DNA of 64,000 nt, taken from the NCBI GenBank assembly GCA_027306995.1, contig DAHUXS010000014.1, positions 62,001 through 126,000 of the forward strand, read 5' to 3'. This document shows positions 52,347 through 59,222 of this stretch, one piece after another. A program made the position numbers and the translations under genes. The stretch is from Lysobacter sp. (GTDB lineage Bacteria > Pseudomonadota > Gammaproteobacteria > Xanthomonadales > Xanthomonadaceae). The notes below the pieces were generated by a model. That model worked only from the letters and a program-made list of their open reading frames with translations, did no database searches and was not told where the DNA came from. Numbering within the stretch: position 1 is the stretch's first letter; every line of letters starts with the position of its first letter.

Positions 52347-53342
52347 ATGAGTACTTCCCAACGCGATTTCGCCCTCGACCCCGACGACACCACGCGGTTG
52401 GCCAACCTGGCCGGACCGTTCGACGCACACCTGCGCCAGATCGAACTGCGGATGGGCGTGGAGATCGCCAATCGCGGCAACGTGTTCCGCGTCACCGGCG
52501 AGGAGGCCTCTGCGGTCGCCGACACCGAACGCTTGCTGCGTTCGCTCTACGACGAGACCGCGGGCGAAACGCTGGACGACCACGCCATCAACGTCCGTCT
52601 TGCCACATTCGCGCACGGCAATGGCGATGGCAAGCGCGAAGCCGATTACGTTCCGCAGGACGTGTCGGTGCGGGTCAAGCGCGGCAACATCCGCGGACGC
52701 GGCGCCAACCAGAAGAAATACCTGCACGAGATCGCTACCCACGACATCAACTTCGGCATCGGTCCGGCCGGCACCGGCAAAACCTTCCTCGCCGTCGCGA
52801 TGGCGGTCGATGCGTTGAACGAATCGCGCGTGCAACGATTGATCCTGGTGCGCCCAGCGGTCGAGGCCGGCGAGAAACTCGGCTTCCTGCCCGGCGACCT
52901 CACCCAGAAGGTCGATCCCTACCTGCGACCGCTCTACGACGCGCTGTACGAAATGCTCGGCGTCGAGAAGGTGGTGAAGCTGCTGGAGAAATCGGTGATC
53001 GAGATCGCGCCGCTCGCCTACATGCGCGGACGCACGCTCAACGATGCCTTCGTGATCCTTGACGAAGCGCAGAACACCACCATCGAACAGATGAAGATGT
53101 TTCTGACACGACTCGGTTTCGGCAGCACCGCGGTAATCACCGGTGACATGACCCAGATCGACTTGCCCAAGCATGTGAAATCCGGCCTACGCGATGCCAT
53201 CGAAGTCCTGCGCGATGTCGATGGCGTCAGCTTCACCTTCTTCGAATCGCGCGACGTGGTGCGCCATCCGCTGGTGGCGCGGATCGTGAATGCGTATGAA
53301 GCAAGGGATGCGCGCGATGGCGAAAGCGGCAGTAATGCTTGA
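52347..53342 (+). CDS. phoH: PhoH family ATPase (YbeZ)
   Basis: A 331-aa PhoH-like P-loop ATPase: an N-terminal KH-like region (about residues 20-70), Walker A GPAGTGKT (about 139-146) and Walker [10 protein letters not shown] (about 235). YbeZ works with YbeY and YbeX in rRNA maturation and ribosome quality. The order phoH-ybeY-ybeX is normally contiguous; here 5.4 kb separates phoH from ybeY. ATG 52347 begins MSTSQRDF; earlier in-frame Mets lack conservation. Confidence 0.95.
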
Positions 53343-53381
53343 GCTAAGTAGCATCGGTTGGCGTGAACGAATAGATGAAGC

Positions 53382-53621
53382 TCACTTCGTAAAGCCCAGG
53401 ACCTGGGCAGTTATGCAGATCACCAATCCGAGCAGTATTACGAACGTCGGAAGACCAGACTTCTTCTCTGCTGATGCATTGTAATTACCATAAGCAATTA
53501 GAGCAAATCCAATGCTGACAGCTAGACTCCTGTAGGAATGGGCATAAATGAAATCTGCGAACTCAAGAACAGCCAGGATGCTGGCCAGAATAAATACGAA
53601 TTTTCTGAGTTTTTGATTCAT
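53382..53621 (-). CDS. small two-helix membrane protein, possible immunity protein
   Basis: A 79-aa protein from the ATG at 53621, with two hydrophobic stretches (about residues 8-26 and 58-76), basic at the N-terminus and ending VLGFTK. No family is recognised. The sequence is AT-rich like the rest of the island. It is the last gene of the peptide-export operon, 62 bp beyond the ABC exporter, a position where bacteriocin clusters often keep a small membrane immunity protein. That role is inference. No good ribosome site is visible, and the frame stays open upstream into the exporter gene. Confidence 0.55.
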   Translation of the reverse strand: MNQKLRKFVFILASILAVLEFADFIYAHSYRSLAVSIGFALIAYGNYNASAEKKSGLPTFVILLGLVICITAQVLGFTK

Positions 53622-53682
53622 GGATTTAACGTGTCCGACATTGTTGGGAACTAAACGCAAACTCCAAAATGGCAAGTCAGAC

Positions 53683-55797
53683 TTAAAGAACCGCAGCTTC
53701 TTCAACTATAGAAGCAACAACCGGCTTGAAATCCCGTACGATCCGACCGCACTCCATCACCAGCACGCGATCCGCACTGGCAATGGTTTCCGGTCGATGT
53801 GCAATGAGGACCTTAGTGAGCTTGAGATGCTTGACCGCCTCGTTTACCCAACGCTCCTTGGCGACATCTAGATGACTGGTCGCTTCGTCCAGAATGAGCA
53901 ACCGCGGATTCCGATACAACGCACGCGCCAGAATAAGGCGTTGTTTCTGTCCACCCGACAGTGAACTACCCATATCGCCGATCAAGCTGTGATAACCCAT
54001 CGGCATTGCTGCGATTTCATCATGGATGGCGGCGAGTTGGGCGGCATGCTTGATGCGTGCCTGGTCGAACTCCTGGTCGAACAGGCTGATGTTGTCGGCG
54101 ATACTGCCCGCGAACAGTTGGTCATCCTGCATGACCACGCCCATCATCGTTCGCAGGTTGCGTGGACCTGCCTTGTGGAGGTCCAACCCGCCAATACGAA
54201 TTTGGCCTTCTGAAGGCTTGAGCAGGCCCAGCAACAGTTTGACCAACGTCGTCTTGCCACAGCCGGAGGCTCCCACGATCGCCACCGACTCGCCATCATT
54301 AATCTCGAGATTGCAGTCCTTGAGCACCCACGGCTCGCTATCGGCGTAGCGGAAACTCAATCCTTCAAAGGCGATCGCGATGCTTTGCGGGGCCGCGATT
54401 TCTGGCAGGTCCAGCCCCTCTTCCGGCGCGGTCAGCACAATATCGGCCAAACGTTCACCATGCAGGCGCAGCATGCGGAATTCGACCCATTTGTCGATGA
54501 GCGACGACATGCGAGTAGCGAACTGATCCTTGTAGGCAAGATAGGCAATCAGCATGCCGACTGAGAACACGTTTTGCATGGCCAGCAGAGCACCAATCCA
54601 GATGACCGCGATGCGTTCGGCACCAAACACCAGTTGGCTCAGGCCATTGAACCCCAACCCCATCCGGGCAAGCCGAACGTCGTTGTTGACTGTCTCGGTC
54701 ATCAGATTGTGGTAGATGCCCCGGCGCAGCGATTCCAGCCCCGCCACCTTAACGCTCTGCATCCCGCGTAGAGTTTCCAGTAGGTGAGTTTGCTGCCTGG
54801 CACCCGCTATTAGTTGCTGCTCGGTACGGTCGCGGACCGGTTGATAGGCAATGGCTCGGATTCCGAAATACAACCCAACCGCAACCAGTGTGATGAGCGC
54901 AAGTTTCCAACTGTAGAACAGCATCAATCCTAATGTCACCACAGCCATCAGGCCATCGATGATGGCCTCGATGAAACTGGTGGTCAGCGTCTTCTGGATG
55001 GTCTGTACGGAACCCATCCGCGAGGTGATATCGCCGAGATGGCGTTTCTCGAAGAAATCCAGCGGCAGGCGAATGGCATGAACAAAGACATTGCCCATCC
55101 ACTGCAGCCCGAGCCGCGAGGACAAGTAGACCACTGACCAGCCACGCAGCAGGCCAATAGCGATTTGCAGCAACAAGGCCAGCCCGAATCCCAATCCCAG
55201 GACGGTCAGCAGGTCCTTGTCCGCGGAGACCAGCGCCTGATCGACCATCCATTGCATGTAGAACGGCGCAAGGATGACGAAGACCTGTAGTGCGACCGAC
55301 AGCAAGAGGATTTGCGTCAGGGTGGGCCACAGCCCGCGAATACGACCGGTCAATTGGCGGGCGGATACCGATGGCATAGCCTTGTGCGGCTTAAACTCGG
55401 CGGAAGGCGTAAGTTCTAGCGCGACGCCTGTGAAATGGTCAGAGAGTTCAGCAAGGCTCAAGACACGCTTGCCGAAGGCTGGGTCGAGGATAGTGACATT
55501 GAACCTACCAACCTTGTCCAGCACCACGAAATGATTCAAATCCCAGTGCAGAATGCAGGGCAGTTTGAGTTTGGACAAATCGTCCAAATCCAACCGCAAT
55601 GGACGCGTCTGAAAGCCCAGTTGTTGAGCAATCGAAATGATGTGGCTGAGTTTTGCGCCTTTGAGGGAAAGCGGAAAGCGACGACGCAGTTCCGCAAGAC
55701 TGGTATTCAGCCCATGCGCGGAAGCAACCATCGCCAAGGAAGCGAGGCCGCATTCTGAAGTTTCTGATTGCAGAATGACCTTTTGCAAACGATTCAC
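53683..55797 (-). CDS. peptidase-C39 ABC transporter (PCAT), CvaB/MchF-like
   Basis: A 704-aa exporter that cleaves double-glycine leaders and pumps out the core peptide. The C39 domain (residues 1-140) has QSETSECGLASLAMVASAHG with oxyanion Gln10 and catalytic Cys16, then His89 (DLNHFVVLD) and Asp105 (ILDPAFGK), so the triad is complete. Six-helix membrane domain, about residues 160-430. ATPase: Walker A VGASGCGKTT (about 517), signature LSGGQKQR, Walker B LLILDEATSHLD and H-loop IAHRPE. Start GTG 55797, 7 bp after the LAB_N gene. Partner of the HlyD-like protein and, presumably, a TolC encoded elsewhere. Confidence 0.96.
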   Translation of the reverse strand: MNRLQKVILQSETSECGLASLAMVASAHGLNTSLAELRRRFPLSLKGAKLSHIISIAQQLGFQTRPLRLDLDDLSKLKLPCILHWDLNHFVVLDKVGRFNVTILDPAFGKRVLSLAELSDHFTGVALELTPSAEFKPHKAMPSVSARQLTGRIRGLWPTLTQILLLSVALQVFVILAPFYMQWMVDQALVSADKDLLTVLGLGFGLALLLQIAIGLLRGWSVVYLSSRLGLQWMGNVFVHAIRLPLDFFEKRHLGDITSRMGSVQTIQKTLTTSFIEAIIDGLMAVVTLGLMLFYSWKLALITLVAVGLYFGIRAIAYQPVRDRTEQQLIAGARQQTHLLETLRGMQSVKVAGLESLRRGIYHNLMTETVNNDVRLARMGLGFNGLSQLVFGAERIAVIWIGALLAMQNVFSVGMLIAYLAYKDQFATRMSSLIDKWVEFRMLRLHGERLADIVLTAPEEGLDLPEIAAPQSIAIAFEGLSFRYADSEPWVLKDCNLEINDGESVAIVGASGCGKTTLVKLLLGLLKPSEGQIRIGGLDLHKAGPRNLRTMMGVVMQDDQLFAGSIADNISLFDQEFDQARIKHAAQLAAIHDEIAAMPMGYHSLIGDMGSSLSGGQKQRLILARALYRNPRLLILDEATSHLDVAKERWVNEAVKHLKLTKVLIAHRPETIASADRVLVMECGRIVRDFKPVVASIVEEAAVL

Positions 55798-55804
55798 TTA
55801 TTTC

Positions 55805-56140
55805 TTAAGCAGAGGATTCATTGTCTGACGCGGCTACTGTTACAACCTCATTCCGGCGTAATAAAATCAGATTCCGGCCATAAATGATGGGTAGAAAGAT
55901 ATTCCCAAGAATGATTGGCAACTTGTCGATGTGAAGCGCATAAAGAACCATGATGATGCTAGCGCTAAAACTTATTCGCCAAAAAATCATCGGAACAACG
56001 ACTTTCCCCGCTTTTTCGGAGTTAAGCCATTGCACTACGAATCTTGAACTAAATAAGGCATTCCCAATAAATCCGAGAGCCGTCCAATAGACGCTATCAA
56101 CATAGAGCCATGGGAACCAAGGACTCAGAAACTCTTTCAT
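55805..56140 (-). CDS. stand-alone LAB_N-domain (lipid A biosynthesis N-terminal-like) membrane protein
   Basis: A 111-aa protein with three or four membrane helices. YWTALGFIGNALFSSRFVVQWLNSEKAGKVVVPMIFWRIS matches the LAB_N domain (about residues 17-85), an SMR-like module often found near glycosyltransferase or lipid A genes. None of those are here; it lies inside the peptide-export operon, directly before the PCAT gene. It may be an accessory membrane factor or immunity protein. AT-rich, like its neighbours. Confidence 0.82.
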   Translation of the reverse strand: MKEFLSPWFPWLYVDSVYWTALGFIGNALFSSRFVVQWLNSEKAGKVVVPMIFWRISFSASIIMVLYALHIDKLPIILGNIFLPIIYGRNLILLRRNEVVTVAASDNESSA

Positions 56141-56158
56141 TATTTATTCCAGATAAGA

Positions 56159-56180
56159 CGGCACCTCTCACGAGGTGCCG
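56159..56180. terminator. strong hairpin between precursor remnant and LAB_N gene
   Basis: CGGCACCTC-TCAC-GAGGTGCCG, a 9-bp perfect stem with a 4-nt loop. There is no T-run, so it may be an attenuator or an mRNA-stabilising element that lets precursor transcripts exceed exporter transcripts. Confidence 0.6.
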
Positions 56181-56200
56181 TTGCCGTAGGTAGCGGGACA

Positions 56201-56236
56201 TTACCAGCCGCCCGGCGGCGTGTTGTCAATCAGCAG
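56201..56236 (-). pseudogene. 3' remnant of a third double-glycine precursor
   Basis: The minus-strand codons read LLIDNTPPGGW then TAA, closely matching the C-terminus of precursor 1 (VINTMPPGGY). There is no leader, no core half and no start codon. The remnant is joined directly to an intergenic element of the type found before each intact precursor, which suggests a deletion that removed the leader and 5' core of a third copy. Confidence 0.6.
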
Positions 56237-56301
56237 ACTCCCTGAGCCTAGACTCCGGGACTTCTCCGAATGATGATGCGACTTTTATGTATTGTTCCGA
56301 A

Positions 56302-56457
56302 TCAATAGCCGCCGGGCGGCATTGTGTTGATCACCCTGGTAGGGATATCGTTATCATCTTCCGTGCTGAACGAGCCGGTTTGTGCATTTGCGAACAACGG
56401 ATCAACTGCTTCACCGCCAGTCACCTCTTGAACTTCAGTCATATTCAAATCACGCAT
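56302..56457 (-). CDS. double-glycine leader precursor peptide 1
   Basis: A 51-aa peptide. The 15-residue leader MRDLNMTEVQEVTGG has the key positions of GG leaders: Leu-12, Glu-8, Val-7, Val-4, Gly-2, Gly-1. The predicted core is 36 aa, begins EAVDPLFANAQTGSFST and ends MPPGGY. It is acidic (six Asp/Glu, one Arg) and has no Cys. GGAG lies 5 nt before the ATG. The gene sits in the operon of the PCAT and HlyD-like exporter, its likely processing and export machinery. The activity of the core (toxin, signal or other) is unknown. Confidence 0.88.
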   Translation of the reverse strand: MRDLNMTEVQEVTGGEAVDPLFANAQTGSFSTEDDNDIPTRVINTMPPGGY

Positions 56458-56476
56458 AAAAACTCCACTTAATATT

Positions 56477-56514
56477 GCGCAGACCCTCTGCGCCCAGGCT
56501 TCGGGACACCCCGA
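56477..56514 (-). repeat. structured intergenic element before precursor 1
   Basis: Two hairpins: TCGGG/CCCGA (4-nt loop, 56501-56514) and GCGCAGA/TCTGCGC (3-nt loop, 56477-56493). A related block, with the order TCGGG..GTCCCG then GCAG..TCTG, lies before precursor 2 and before the remnant. Confidence 0.6.
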
Positions 56515-56572
56515 TTTCCTCGTTCACTTGCCTCTTTATGTTCAAGAAAGAGACTGAGTGTCAAAATCTGTA

Positions 56573-56737
56573 TCAATTACCAAAAATTGGATGCGCCGCG
56601 AGCGCGTCTGCTACTTGCTTCCAGTAGTACGCCGAGTCGTACGTACTGGATGAGCCAGTTTCTGCATTTGCGAACAATGGATCAACTGCTTCACCGCCAG
56701 TTACTGCTTGAACTTCATATACGTTCAAACCTCGCAT
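56573..56737 (-). CDS. double-glycine leader precursor peptide 2
   Basis: A 54-aa peptide. Leader MRGLNVYEVQAVTGG, same consensus positions as precursor 1. The predicted core is 39 aa: its start EAVDPLFANAETGSSST is nearly identical to precursor 1, but the rest (YDSAYYWKQVADALAA, ending HPIFGN) is unrelated. Net acidic, no Cys. GGAG 5 nt before the ATG. The first 45 codons of the two genes are near-identical in DNA up to the divergence point, implying duplication or gene conversion. Confidence 0.88.
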   Translation of the reverse strand: MRGLNVYEVQAVTGGEAVDPLFANAETGSSSTYDSAYYWKQVADALAAHPIFGN

Positions 56738-56752
56738 AAAAACTCCATTTTC

Positions 56753-56793
56753 TGCACAGAATCCCCTGCACTACGGGCTCCGGGACTTTCCCG
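56753..56793 (-). repeat. structured intergenic element before precursor 2
   Basis: A CGGGA/TCCCG hairpin (56781-56793) and a TGCA..TGCA block (56753-56770), in the same order and spacing as the element before precursor 1, ending in the same GGAGTTTTTATGCG start region. Confidence 0.55.
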
Positions 56794-56805
56794 AAATCAA
56801 CACCA

Positions 56806-58062
56806 TCAGACCCGTCCTTTCAGCGAGTACAACGGCTCAAATATCCATTCAATCAGCGAACGCCTTTCCCCCAGCACATCCGCTTCCAATGCCATCCCGG
56901 GCTTCAACGGTTCCGGTTTGCCATACGCAGTAACGGTTTGCTTCGCAAGCGAGACCAGAACGCGATAGATGGTTTCGCTGCCATCGCCTTTTAGGCCCAA
57001 CGACGCCATCTCGCTCGGACTGAGCGCACTACGGCTGATGCGCACCACTTTCCCTTCGTAATGCCCAAACTTTTGATACGGAAAGGCCTGATAGCGAAGC
57101 AGCACCGCATCACCAGGCTCAATGAAACCGATGGCATGACTGGGCACTAGCAACTCCGCTTGTAAGGGGCTGTCCGTCGGCAACAAGCTCATCAATGGTT
57201 GCCCGGCCTGCACTGCCTGTCCCAGCTTGACCAGTTGCGTCGCCACCATGCCCTGCACAGGTGCGTTGACTTGCAGTGCCCCACGCGTTGCGGCTTCGAC
57301 GCGTTCCTGTTCCAAGCCGGCACGGTCACGGTGATAGTTGGCTTGCGCCGTCAATCGTTGTTCCGGGATTGCGCGCAACTGCTGTTCCAGTTGACTGATG
57401 GTGCGTTGCGCTTCAATGGCCTGGCGTTGCAGGGCTTGCAGTTGACTGACTTGCGCCAGCACCGCGCCTTCCTGTTGCTTCAACTGAAGCGTGCTCACCA
57501 GCTTCTGGTCTTCCGCGACCCGAAGGCGGTGCAAGGAGTCTTTGGCAACTTGAATTTGTTGTTGTTGTGTGGCGATTTCGCCCTGCATGTGCACGAGTTC
57601 ACGATGGGCGTTCGCCAGTTGCGCGCCCAGCCCCGAGGCCTGCGTATCCAGCAATGCTTCTTGTGCGCTCTGCGCACTAGCGAGTCCTTGCTCCTTTTCC
57701 TGCACGCCGCGCTCAAGGGCATCAGCGGTATTGCCGTTCGTGGAGGTCACTGATGGTATCGTCACCACGGCCAAACGTTTATCTACTTGAACGAAGACGC
57801 CTTCCGACACATCCATGACTGAAACCACACCAGCGACCGGCGCCAAGACCGTAGCCAAACCGCGACTGGGCACCAGTTGCCCGGTCACTCGCTCACGATG
57901 GGTGTAGTTGCCGAAAACGAGGAAAAGCACGACCGCGAGCGCCGCAACGGCAGCGAATCCGGTGAGGATCCATAGTGATGGTGGCTGGGCGAGCGAGATG
58001 CCTCCCAACCAACTCGTGCGCTTGGCTTCCAGTACTTCTTTGCGAAAGAGACCTTCTGGCAT
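56806..58062 (-). CDS. HlyD/CvaA-type membrane fusion protein
   Basis: A 418-aa periplasmic adaptor (CvaA ~413 aa). Start MPEGLFRKEVLEAKRTSWLGG, an inner-membrane helix (about residues 32-51), a lipoyl half-motif (VLAPVAGVVSVMDVSEGVFV), a long coiled coil rich in Gln/Glu/Ala (about 110-270), then the second half (LQVNAPVQGMVATQLVKLGQ) and a beta-barrel domain (about 300-415). It bridges the PCAT to a TolC-type outer channel. First gene of the operon. ATG 58062 fits CvaA; the frame runs on upstream through the promoter. Confidence 0.93.
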   Translation of the reverse strand: MPEGLFRKEVLEAKRTSWLGGISLAQPPSLWILTGFAAVAALAVVLFLVFGNYTHRERVTGQLVPSRGLATVLAPVAGVVSVMDVSEGVFVQVDKRLAVVTIPSVTSTNGNTADALERGVQEKEQGLASAQSAQEALLDTQASGLGAQLANAHRELVHMQGEIATQQQQIQVAKDSLHRLRVAEDQKLVSTLQLKQQEGAVLAQVSQLQALQRQAIEAQRTISQLEQQLRAIPEQRLTAQANYHRDRAGLEQERVEAATRGALQVNAPVQGMVATQLVKLGQAVQAGQPLMSLLPTDSPLQAELLVPSHAIGFIEPGDAVLLRYQAFPYQKFGHYEGKVVRISRSALSPSEMASLGLKGDGSETIYRVLVSLAKQTVTAYGKPEPLKPGMALEADVLGERRSLIEWIFEPLYSLKGRV

Positions 58063-58090
58063 CGATTCTGCATATATCCGCCCTATATCT

Positions 58091-58119
58091 GTTCTAGATT
58101 CCAGACAACAAACCGTCAA
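58091..58119 (-). promoter_or_regulatory. promoter of the peptide-export operon
   Basis: On the minus strand, TTGACG (58114-58119), a 17-bp spacer and TAGAAC (58091-58096), about 30 bp before the hlyD-like ATG. Confidence 0.6.
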
Positions 58120-58128
58120 TTGACAAAG

Positions 58129-58145
58129 TGCTTGCACGGCAAGCA
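58129..58145. promoter_or_regulatory. palindrome, candidate operator of the XRE regulator
   Basis: TGCTTGC-ACG-GCAAGCA, perfect 7-bp arms, 10 bp upstream of the -35 box of the export operon and inside the 246-bp gap to the divergent XRE gene. No other gene is seen in this gap, which is AT-rich. Confidence 0.5.
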
Positions 58146-58308
58146 GAACTGCACAAATTTGATTCAGTTTCCACAACGGGTTTCGTTTCAATTTCAGAAA
58201 AATCTGACAGTAATAATTTTCATGTTCGAGCATTAATTTTGGTGCGCGGGCTTTGTCAGGGTTGAGCTGACTTTGCATCGTCGATTCCAACTCTTCCTGA
58301 GCTTTACC

Positions 58309-58677
58309 ATGAACCTCCCAACCCGCATTCGCACTGCACGCCGCAAAGCCGATCTTTCGCAGCAAGCCCTTGCCAAATGCTTGGATGTGAGCCGCGGCGC
58401 TGTTTCCAACTGGGAAGGCAATGGGCAGGCTCGTCCGTCCATCGACAATCTGCGCGGAATCGCCGAGGTCACCAAGACATCTTTCGATTGGTTAGCCACC
58501 GGCCGAGGCTCGATAATGCCGGATGCATCCACTGCGTCTGCACCCATTATCGGCTCGCCGGAAGCATGCGATCCAATGGAAACCCGGTTGCTCAACCTGT
58601 TCCGCTCGATCTCCTTCAACAAGCGGGCGCGATTCCTCGAAGCCATCACTGCCATGCTGGTAGTCATGTTCGATTGA
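58309..58677 (+). CDS. XRE-family (Cro/CI-type) transcriptional regulator
   Basis: A 122-aa protein with an N-terminal HTH (about residues 5-62: TRIRTARRKADLSQQALAKCL, VSRGAVSNWEGNG) and a C-terminal helical part (ETRLLNLFRSISFNKRARFLEAI) that may dimerise. Divergent from the export operon, so it probably regulates it; the palindrome at 58129 is the likeliest site. Base composition is closer to the chromosome than that of the peptide genes. The start at ATG 58309 has only a weak ribosome site. Confidence 0.87.
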   Translation: MNLPTRIRTARRKADLSQQALAKCLDVSRGAVSNWEGNGQARPSIDNLRGIAEVTKTSFDWLATGRGSIMPDASTASAPIIGSPEACDPMETRLLNLFRSISFNKRARFLEAITAMLVVMFD

Positions 58678-58745
58678 GTAAGTGATGGGAGAGGCTCTGG
58701 AACCGATAAATACACCCCAAGCACCTGCTGGCGTAAACTCCATCC

Positions 58746-59222
58746 ATGACCCGCGGTCCCGTTCGCCTCGATGTCGCAGTCAGCTACGCCGTGCCGCGCG
58801 CCGGCGTGCCGGCCGCCACCAGTTTCCGCCTGTGGGTGGCGTCCGCGCTGGAAGGTCGCATCCTCGAAGCCGATCTCGCGCTGCGTATCGTCGGCGTCGA
58901 CGAAGGCCGTGCGCTGAATCGCCACTATCGCGGCAAGGATTACGCCACCAACGTGTTGAGCTTCCCGGCGGAGCGTCCGCCCGGACTGCCCAAGGCGGCG
59001 AAATTCCCCCTGCTCGGCGACCTGGTGCTGTGCGCGCCGGTGGTGGCGAAAGAGGCAAAGGAGCAGCACAAATCGCTCAACCATCATTACGCGCACCTGA
59101 CCGTGCACGGCTGCCTGCACCTGCTGGGCTGGGACCATGAGCACGACGCCGATGCCCAGGCCATGGAGCAGTTGGAACGCGAGGTGCTGCTGGAGCTCGG
59201 GATCGCCGATCCCTACGCCTGA
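58746..59222 (+). CDS. ybeY: endoribonuclease YbeY
   Basis: A 158-aa Zn-dependent rRNA maturation factor. The metal motif HLTVHGCLHLLGWDHE (H3xH5xH pattern, about residues 117-132) and LNRHYRGKDYATNVLSFP (about 58) are intact. Works with YbeZ/PhoH, from which it is separated by the island. Followed by ybeX. Confidence 0.96.
   Translation: MTRGPVRLDVAVSYAVPRAGVPAATSFRLWVASALEGRILEADLALRIVGVDEGRALNRHYRGKDYATNVLSFPAERPPGLPKAAKFPLLGDLVLCAPVVAKEAKEQHKSLNHHYAHLTVHGCLHLLGWDHEHDADAQAMEQLEREVLLELGIADPYA

What the first reader, a model, noticed from the sequence alone, without database searches (positions are those of the whole stretch)
56302..56737. Two unannotated double-glycine precursor peptides, apparently a new acidic family
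Two ORFs of 51 and 54 codons have textbook GG leaders (MRDLNMTEVQEVTGG and MRGLNVYEVQAVTGG) and good ribosome sites, and lie in an operon with a PCAT and HlyD-like adaptor. The predicted cores (36 and 39 aa) are acidic, lack Cys and are not Gly-rich, unlike colicin V or class II microcins as I know them. No modification enzyme is present. They may be antimicrobial, signalling or contact peptides of an undescribed type.
Basis: partly seen in the sequence, partly recalled or inferred. Interest (0 to 1): 0.9.

Follow-up and report, generated by a model that had tools for sequence, protein, structure and literature searches.

The report
Exported peptides with shared RNA leader
Two small exported peptides with no known relatives sit in a bacterial export cassette whose cargo genes, however different the cargo, often share a folded RNA piece just before their start codon that appears not to have been described.

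Summary
Two paralogous ORFs (51 and 54 codons, - strand) have colicin V-type double-glycine leaders, lie between an HlyD-like adaptor and a C39-peptidase ABC exporter (PCAT), and look translated (pN 0.11, pS 0.35). A decayed third unit follows. The cores are acidic, Cys-free and Gly-poor; no relative was found outside this genome, apart from a weak match to a LysM protein. So the 'new acidic family' is one pair in one genome. Acidic or hydrophilic cargo of other sequence occurs in the same slot of relatives, beside colicin V-like cargo.

Each gene is preceded by a ~60-nt two-hairpin element. The same element, supported by covariation, precedes GG-leader genes with unrelated cores in 15 genera of Xanthomonadaceae (44 matches in 38 of 395 genomes at E<=1e-5; 41 of 44 before such a gene), and once in another family of the order. 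Rfam 15 has no match to it.

Best reading: an acquired microcin-type export island with swappable cargo, in which a cis-RNA module sets expression of the cargo. The peptides are most likely secreted antibacterial or signalling peptides; neither activity nor the element's function has been tested.

The parts
56573..56737 (-). GG precursor, 54 aa (leader MRGLNVYEVQAVTGG, core 39 aa)
56302..56457 (-). GG precursor, 51 aa (leader MRDLNMTEVQEVTGG, core 36 aa)
56743..56805 (-). structured 5' element before the 54-aa gene; ends 5 nt before its start codon (in the seed alignment of the model)
56466..56524 (-). structured 5' element before the 51-aa gene; ends 8 nt before its start codon (not in the seed; R1 E 1.5e-5)
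56201..56270 (-). decayed third unit: element-like sequence fused to a tail like that of the 51-aa precursor; leader and inner core missing (described only)
56806..58062 (-). HlyD-like adaptor, about 418 aa (start chosen from where relatives align; the listed ORF runs to 58365)
55805..56140 (-). LAB_N (PF07578) membrane protein, 111 aa; immunity candidate by position only
53683..55797 (-). peptidase-containing ABC transporter (PCAT), 704 aa, C39 domain
53382..53621 (-). 79-aa ORF with two hydrophobic segments (107 aa if the TTG at 53705 is used); second immunity candidate, no relative in the 60 loci
58273..58677 (+). divergent HTH_3 regulator; relatives in 26 of 60 adaptor loci

Best explanation
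This is an acquired type I export island inserted between phoH and ybeY: HTH regulator, adaptor, cargo units, membrane protein, PCAT. The cargo slot is hypervariable: relatives keep the exporter and swap the cargo. Here the cargo is a duplicated (once at least triplicated) GG precursor. The PCAT's C39 domain is expected to cut after GG and export acidic peptides of 36 and 39 residues through adaptor and TolC; the LAB_N protein or the 79-aa ORF may give immunity. Each intact cargo gene carries its own copy of a structured RNA element, two hairpins ending some 20 nt before the start codon. I infer that it raises or times expression of the small cargo relative to the exporter genes of the same operon (mRNA processing or stabilisation, or a protein or ligand site acting on translation). 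Shown: ORFs, exporter, duplication and decay, cargo swapping, the element's covariation and its association with GG genes. Inferred: one transcript, cleavage, export, immunity, the element's action, and the peptides' activity (antibacterial somewhat more likely than signalling).
For: Frames: pN 0.11 against pS 0.35. Island: GC 45-60% against about 61-68% around it; phoH and ybeY are adjacent in 10 of 16 genus genomes, and the island lies between them here and in G106. Cargo swap: nearest PCATs 87% identical, cargo unrelated. Element: seed of 23 sequences, 27 cells changed on both sides against 10.9 in shuffles (0 of 500) and 3-11 in slid structures; 44 matches at E<=1e-5 in 38 of 395 family genomes, 41 of 44 before a GG/GA/AG leader by eye. 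Strict rule: 35 of 39 model rows against 242 of 40000 random positions. Distance to the start codon 10.0 +- 3.5 nt. All 38 genomes have the adaptor, which 147 of 395 have.
Against: No expression, cleavage, export or activity data. Most of the 44 matches were in the training set; among 12 independent matches at E<=1e-5 only 6 pass the strict rule (9 by eye, three of these being near-identical orthologues). Weaker matches are mostly chance: of 15 fetched, 1 strict, 3 by eye. Shuffled controls do not remove relatedness. Folding z-scores of five members are -1.84, -3.12, -1.00, -2.50, -0.62. The proposed CCC:GGG pseudoknot is not significant. Many GG genes in relatives lack a detectable element. 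LAB_N is in 0 of 60 other loci, so its immunity role rests on position.
Confidence: 0.6

Rival explanations
1. The two peptides are class II microcins: antibacterial, with a co-encoded immunity protein (LAB_N or the 79-aa ORF). This is the leading sub-hypothesis for what the cores do, compatible with the best explanation.
For: Colicin V-type leader, PCAT and adaptor; colicin V-like cargo in the nearest clusters; two-TM small ORFs between cargo and PCAT in L038 and L039 and in 14 of 41 slots, the place LAB_N takes here; variable cargo. In a 2026 screen 12 of 23 class II microcin candidates from Pantoea, Erwinia and Xanthomonas inhibited E. coli weakly (PMC13174018, passages).
Against: Cores lack the Gly-rich hydrophobic character; no family match; no immunity homologue.
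Confidence: 0.5
2. The peptides are signals or host-directed peptides, as RaxX of Xanthomonas is.
For: RaxX shows that a PCAT of this family exports a non-bacteriocin GG peptide (PMC8872720, passages). The cores are hydrophilic and soluble-looking, and one has Tyr beside Asp.
Against: No sulfotransferase in the island; two PF13469 genes lie elsewhere in the genome. No receptor gene seen in the island; the cores are not conserved in the genus, which is unusual for a signal.
Confidence: 0.25
3. The element is a DNA recombination or cassette-exchange site rather than an RNA regulator.
For: It is conserved while cargo changes; tandem copies occur; in L048 and L057 a second copy follows a duplicated 3' fragment of the adaptor gene.
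Against: Pairs are kept through changes on both sides, the distance to the start codon is tight, and copies were seen before cargo genes, not on both sides of them.
Confidence: 0.15
4. The pair is a decaying or silent remnant with no present function.
For: The third unit has decayed; no homologues of the cores were found.
Against: Frames, ribosome sites, leaders and elements are intact in two units, and pN/pS is about 0.3 (small numbers).
Confidence: 0.1

Closest known systems
Class II microcins (microcin V / colicin V, CvaAB-TolC export)
   Same: GG leader of the colicin V kind (recalled), PCAT and HlyD-like adaptor next to the cargo, small membrane ORFs nearby, colicin V-like cargo in relatives' slots
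   Different: acidic, Gly-poor, Cys-free cores without family match; duplicated cargo; structured 5' element before each gene; no known immunity protein
RaxX / RaxSTAB of Xanthomonas (passages of PMC8872720; not fetched)
   Same: GG peptide exported by PCAT and adaptor in the same bacterial family, not a bacteriocin
   Different: no sulfotransferase gene in the island; sequences not compared
NHLP-type bacteriocin exporters (TIGR03796)
   Same: best NCBIfam match of the PCAT, 506 bits
   Different: below the family cut-off of 853.3 bits; short colicin V-type leader instead of a nitrile-hydratase-like one (recalled)
Bacterial cis-regulatory RNAs in Rfam
   Same: short covarying hairpins at a fixed distance before a start codon
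   Different: no Rfam 15 family matches the element at E<=1 in window 53000-59000 or in 12 relatives' loci

Membership tests
Class II microcin | double-glycine leader of colicin V type | tested here: met
   both ORFs, about 15-aa leaders ending in TGG
Class II microcin | PCAT and adaptor encoded with the cargo | tested here: met
Class II microcin | recognisable microcin core (family model, or Gly-rich hydrophobic core; features recalled) | tested here: not met
   no Pfam or NCBIfam match at E<=10; Gly 8% and 5%, mean hydropathy -0.52 and -0.21
Class II microcin | cognate immunity gene | tested here: inconclusive
   LAB_N and the 79-aa ORF are candidates by position and hydrophobic segments only
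Class II microcin | antibacterial activity | not testable with these tools
   no assay
RaxX-type sulfated peptide | sulfotransferase gene beside the precursor | tested here: not met
   none among the island proteins scanned; two PF13469 matches elsewhere in the genome, on C3 and C11
RaxX-type sulfated peptide | similarity of the core to RaxX | not tested
   RaxX was named only, not fetched
NHLP bacteriocin system | exporter above the NCBIfam cut-off | tested here: not met
   506.2 bits against a cut-off of 853.3
Any Rfam 15 RNA family (for the element) | covariance-model match | tested here: not met

The most novel reading that the evidence does not exclude
A so far undescribed class of cis-acting RNA is dedicated to exported GG-leader peptides in Xanthomonadaceae and near kin. 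It goes with the cargo slot rather than with any peptide family, sits before individual cargo genes, and controls how much cargo is made relative to its exporter. In this genome it drives two acidic peptides of a type with no known relatives.
Probability: 0.5. Interest if true: 0.75.

Novelty: new variant of a known kind. Interest (0 to 1): 0.62.

Why it matters
Small exported peptides are hard to find because their cores share nothing. An RNA signature before the gene, independent of the core, gives a second handle for finding them, and makes testable how a bacterium makes much peptide and little exporter from one operon. The acidic pair adds an unusual cargo to a slot that in many relatives holds colicin V-like peptides.

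Tried and rejected
Homologues of the cores: Pfam and NCBIfam at E<=10; tblastn of the 51-aa peptide on plasmids and phages; degenerate patterns in the collection of 84,980 species and in IMG/VR (141 and 14 stretches matched a pattern, none confirmed at E<=1e-3); 395 family genomes with the 51-aa peptide only. The sole signal outside the pair is the LysM protein N-terminus (E 2e-4 to 3e-3). PHROGs, PADLOC and solved structures were not searched, and no structure was predicted.

Pseudoknot between CCC before hairpin 2 and GGG in its loop: attractive by eye, with swaps such as CCU:AGG (L068, L070) and UCC:GGA (L043), but own-pair complementarity was 29 of 41 against a mean of 26.1 in shuffles, reached by 151 of 1000. 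Not claimed.

Ribosome-site sequestration as a switch: not general (median SD unpaired 0.54, below 0.3 in 9 of 42), though the window's own 54-aa gene is one of the low ones (0.24). DNA recombination site: kept as a rival. Two order-level matches in one other family (L215, L217) look like coding sequence and were counted as chance.

Papers: search listings for (searches found no paper; 75 and 77 listed 15 of 63 and 12 of 131); passages of PMC13174018, PMC8872720 and PMC11885251; term look-ups in PMC2864571 and PMC8632094 with no occurrence of any term. The 2017 survey of 224 structured RNAs (recalled) is not held and could not be checked. A first attempt to hand in this report was sent back once for checking; in it I had written 8 instead of 7 Xanthomonadaceae for and '3-4' instead of 3 for the weak matches, both corrected here.

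Full report
Observation. On the minus strand the order is adaptor (56806-58062), 54-aa ORF (56573-56737), 51-aa ORF (56302-56457), a decayed unit (about 56201-56270), a 111-aa LAB_N protein (55805-56140), PCAT (53683-55797) and a 79-aa membrane ORF (53382-53621); an HTH regulator points the other way at 58273-58677. The two precursors are 59% identical. Their first 32 codons differ at 8 synonymous and 8 nonsynonymous positions, pS 0.35, pN 0.11. The PCAT keeps C16, H89 and D105, the expected C39 residues by motif, and its ATPase motifs. The finding is real.

Island. GC falls from about 61-68% to 45-60% across about 53.3-58.7 kb. In the genus, 16 of 17 genomes gave ybeY. In 10 of these 16, phoH and ybeY are adjacent (within about 100 nt). 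In the window and in G106 the island lies between them. Three have about 1 kb of other sequence there, and in one phoH was not within reach. So the cassette is an insertion. G289 has the cassette elsewhere (L039 shows neither phoH nor ybeY) while its phoH-ybeY junction is empty.

Cargo slot. The adaptor is in 147 of 395 family genomes at E<=1e-25. I fetched 60 loci, the best 62 matches apart from the own genome less two (G272:C165, G029:C8). A PCAT match lies in 56 of 60, and a strict regex finds a GG-leader ORF somewhere in 34 of 60. The nearest relatives, G106 and G289, have PCATs 87% identical to this one but unrelated, colicin V-like cargo. They also carry 57- and 51-aa ORFs with two hydrophobic segments between cargo and PCAT, the place LAB_N takes here; 14 of 41 slots of 150-4000 nt have such an ORF. 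LAB_N itself is in 0 of the 60 other loci; a second LAB_N gene in this genome lies beside a glycosyltransferase-like ORF (named by eye). Among 42 element-linked cargo peptides, cores range from net -8 to +3 and 9 of 42 are at -4 or below, both window cores among them; L062 and L084 carry short acidic Gly-poor cores of other sequence. In one search the leader/core cut was automatic and is visibly misplaced for a few peptides, such as L166, L169, L061 and L075.

The element. Comparing the stretch between adaptor stop and first cargo start showed the same 60-nt motif in relatives with unrelated cargo. Seed alignment A2 had 23 sequences, picked by a regex and so biased; a sub-type without hairpin 1 was left out. 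On it the given structure has 87.2% standard pairs. It has 27 cells changed on both sides against 10.9 in shuffles (0 of 500), and a covariation score of 0.277 against 0.170; slid structures give 3-11 cells and 0.048-0.124 (that structure included the proposed CCC:GGG pairs, which contribute no such change). Shuffles do not remove relatedness, so the slid control matters. Model R1 found 39 matches at E<=0.002 in 61 sources, among them the unit before the 51-aa gene, which was not in the seed (E 1.5e-5). On A4, which is fitted to the model, the count is 50 against 15.1, and 6-13 in slid structures. Folding z-scores for five members are -1.84, -3.12, -1.00, -2.50 and -0.62: not remarkable singly.

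Association with GG genes. Rule: a start codon from -8 to +30 nt around the model end, an SD 4-mer, 30-140 codons and a leader regex. It holds for 35 of 39 A4 rows and for 242 of 40000 random positions. The four misses are a 42-aa non-GG ORF (L048), a masked stretch (L064), a GG gene with only a 3-base SD (L070) and an AG-type leader (L074). R2 in 395 family genomes gave 60 matches at E<=1e-3 in 53 genomes; 44 of them, in 38 genomes and 15 genera, are at E<=1e-5. Of those 44, by eye 41 precede a GG, GA or AG leader, one is masked and two do not; 35 of the 44 belonged to the training set. Independent matches at E<=1e-5 (9 family, 3 order) give 6 of 12 strictly and 9 of 12 by eye; L162, L166 and L169 are near-identical orthologues, L164 starts 43 nt away, and the misses are L168, L215 and L217. 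Of the 16 weaker family matches, one lies in L044 (GG gene); the 15 fetched give 1 strictly and 3 by eye, so E above 1e-5 is not reliable. All 38 genomes have the adaptor. Of 39 A4 rows, 27 lie within 150 nt of the adaptor's end and 12 do not (two of the 12 follow duplicated adaptor fragments); of the 9 independent family matches, 8 are not next to an adaptor gene listed. So the element follows cargo rather than the adaptor.

Breadth. In the order sample, 13 of 388 genomes matched at E<=1e-5, 10 of them family members; of the three others, one (L218, another family) has a GG gene. In the class sample, 2 of 355 genomes matched, both of this family. These large searches used stricter filters that lose weak matches.

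Mechanism. The start codon lies 10.0 +- 3.5 nt past the model end (n 42), roughly 20 nt past hairpin 2. The SD is mostly free in the predicted fold (median unpaired 0.54, n 42), though not before the window's 54-aa gene (0.24). That fits an element that stabilises or processes the mRNA, or binds a protein or ligand, better than simple SD masking. A copy per gene suggests raising cargo over exporter; but closely packed second GG genes in L047 and L061 have no copy of their own in the listing. This is inference.

The LysM echo. The 51-aa core's VDPLFANAQTGSFSTE resembles the N-terminus of a LysM protein in this genus (own genome E 4.1e-4; four more genomes), with 38 of 50 nt identical without gaps. 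The LysM protein is in 17 of 17 genus genomes, but the alignment reaches its first residue only in 5. It may be chance or a recombination source for the core; unexplained.

Comparison. It works like a class II microcin cassette. It is not filed as a described class II microcin because the core features tested were not met. It is not filed as RaxX-type, for want of a sulfotransferase in the island. The element matches no Rfam 15 family at E<=1, and no title or abstract start listed names such an element (searches found no paper); subscription literature is mostly not held, and one key survey could not be checked. Overall: a new variant of a known kind, with an RNA part that may be a new class.

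Noticed in passing
L003:1315-1581 (-), own genome contig C17; relatives L004-L007: N-terminus of a LysM protein (VDPLFKDAQTGSFSTE-like) resembles the peptide core; 38 of 50 nt identical ungapped to the 51-aa gene.
   Followed up: partly
window 53343-58745; L122, L131, L133, L135: The phoH-ybeY junction is an insertion spot in this genus: the island in two genomes, about 1 kb of other sequence with a ~330-codon ORF in three, adjacent genes in ten of sixteen.
   Followed up: partly
L048:6281-6341 (+): A strong element match (E 5.1e-20) precedes a 42-aa ORF without GG leader.
   Followed up: no
L062, L071, L084, L065, L059: Short hydrophilic GG peptides with related W- and Q/R/N-rich tails recur in several relatives: another possible acidic cargo family (seen by eye).
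   Followed up: no
L049:8433, L069:6364, L070:5121, L076:5881, L083:9852: A sub-type of the element without hairpin 1 precedes closely similar 46-aa Cys-containing GG peptides.
   Followed up: no
L048:6491-6742, L057:7091-7261: Duplicated 3' fragments of the adaptor gene stand before second copies of the element, hinting at how cargo units are duplicated.
   Followed up: no
L171, L183, L184, L185 and L173, L174, L178: Two recurring weak R2 matches not before GG genes (E 3.7e-5 to 7e-4); probably other conserved hairpins.
   Followed up: no
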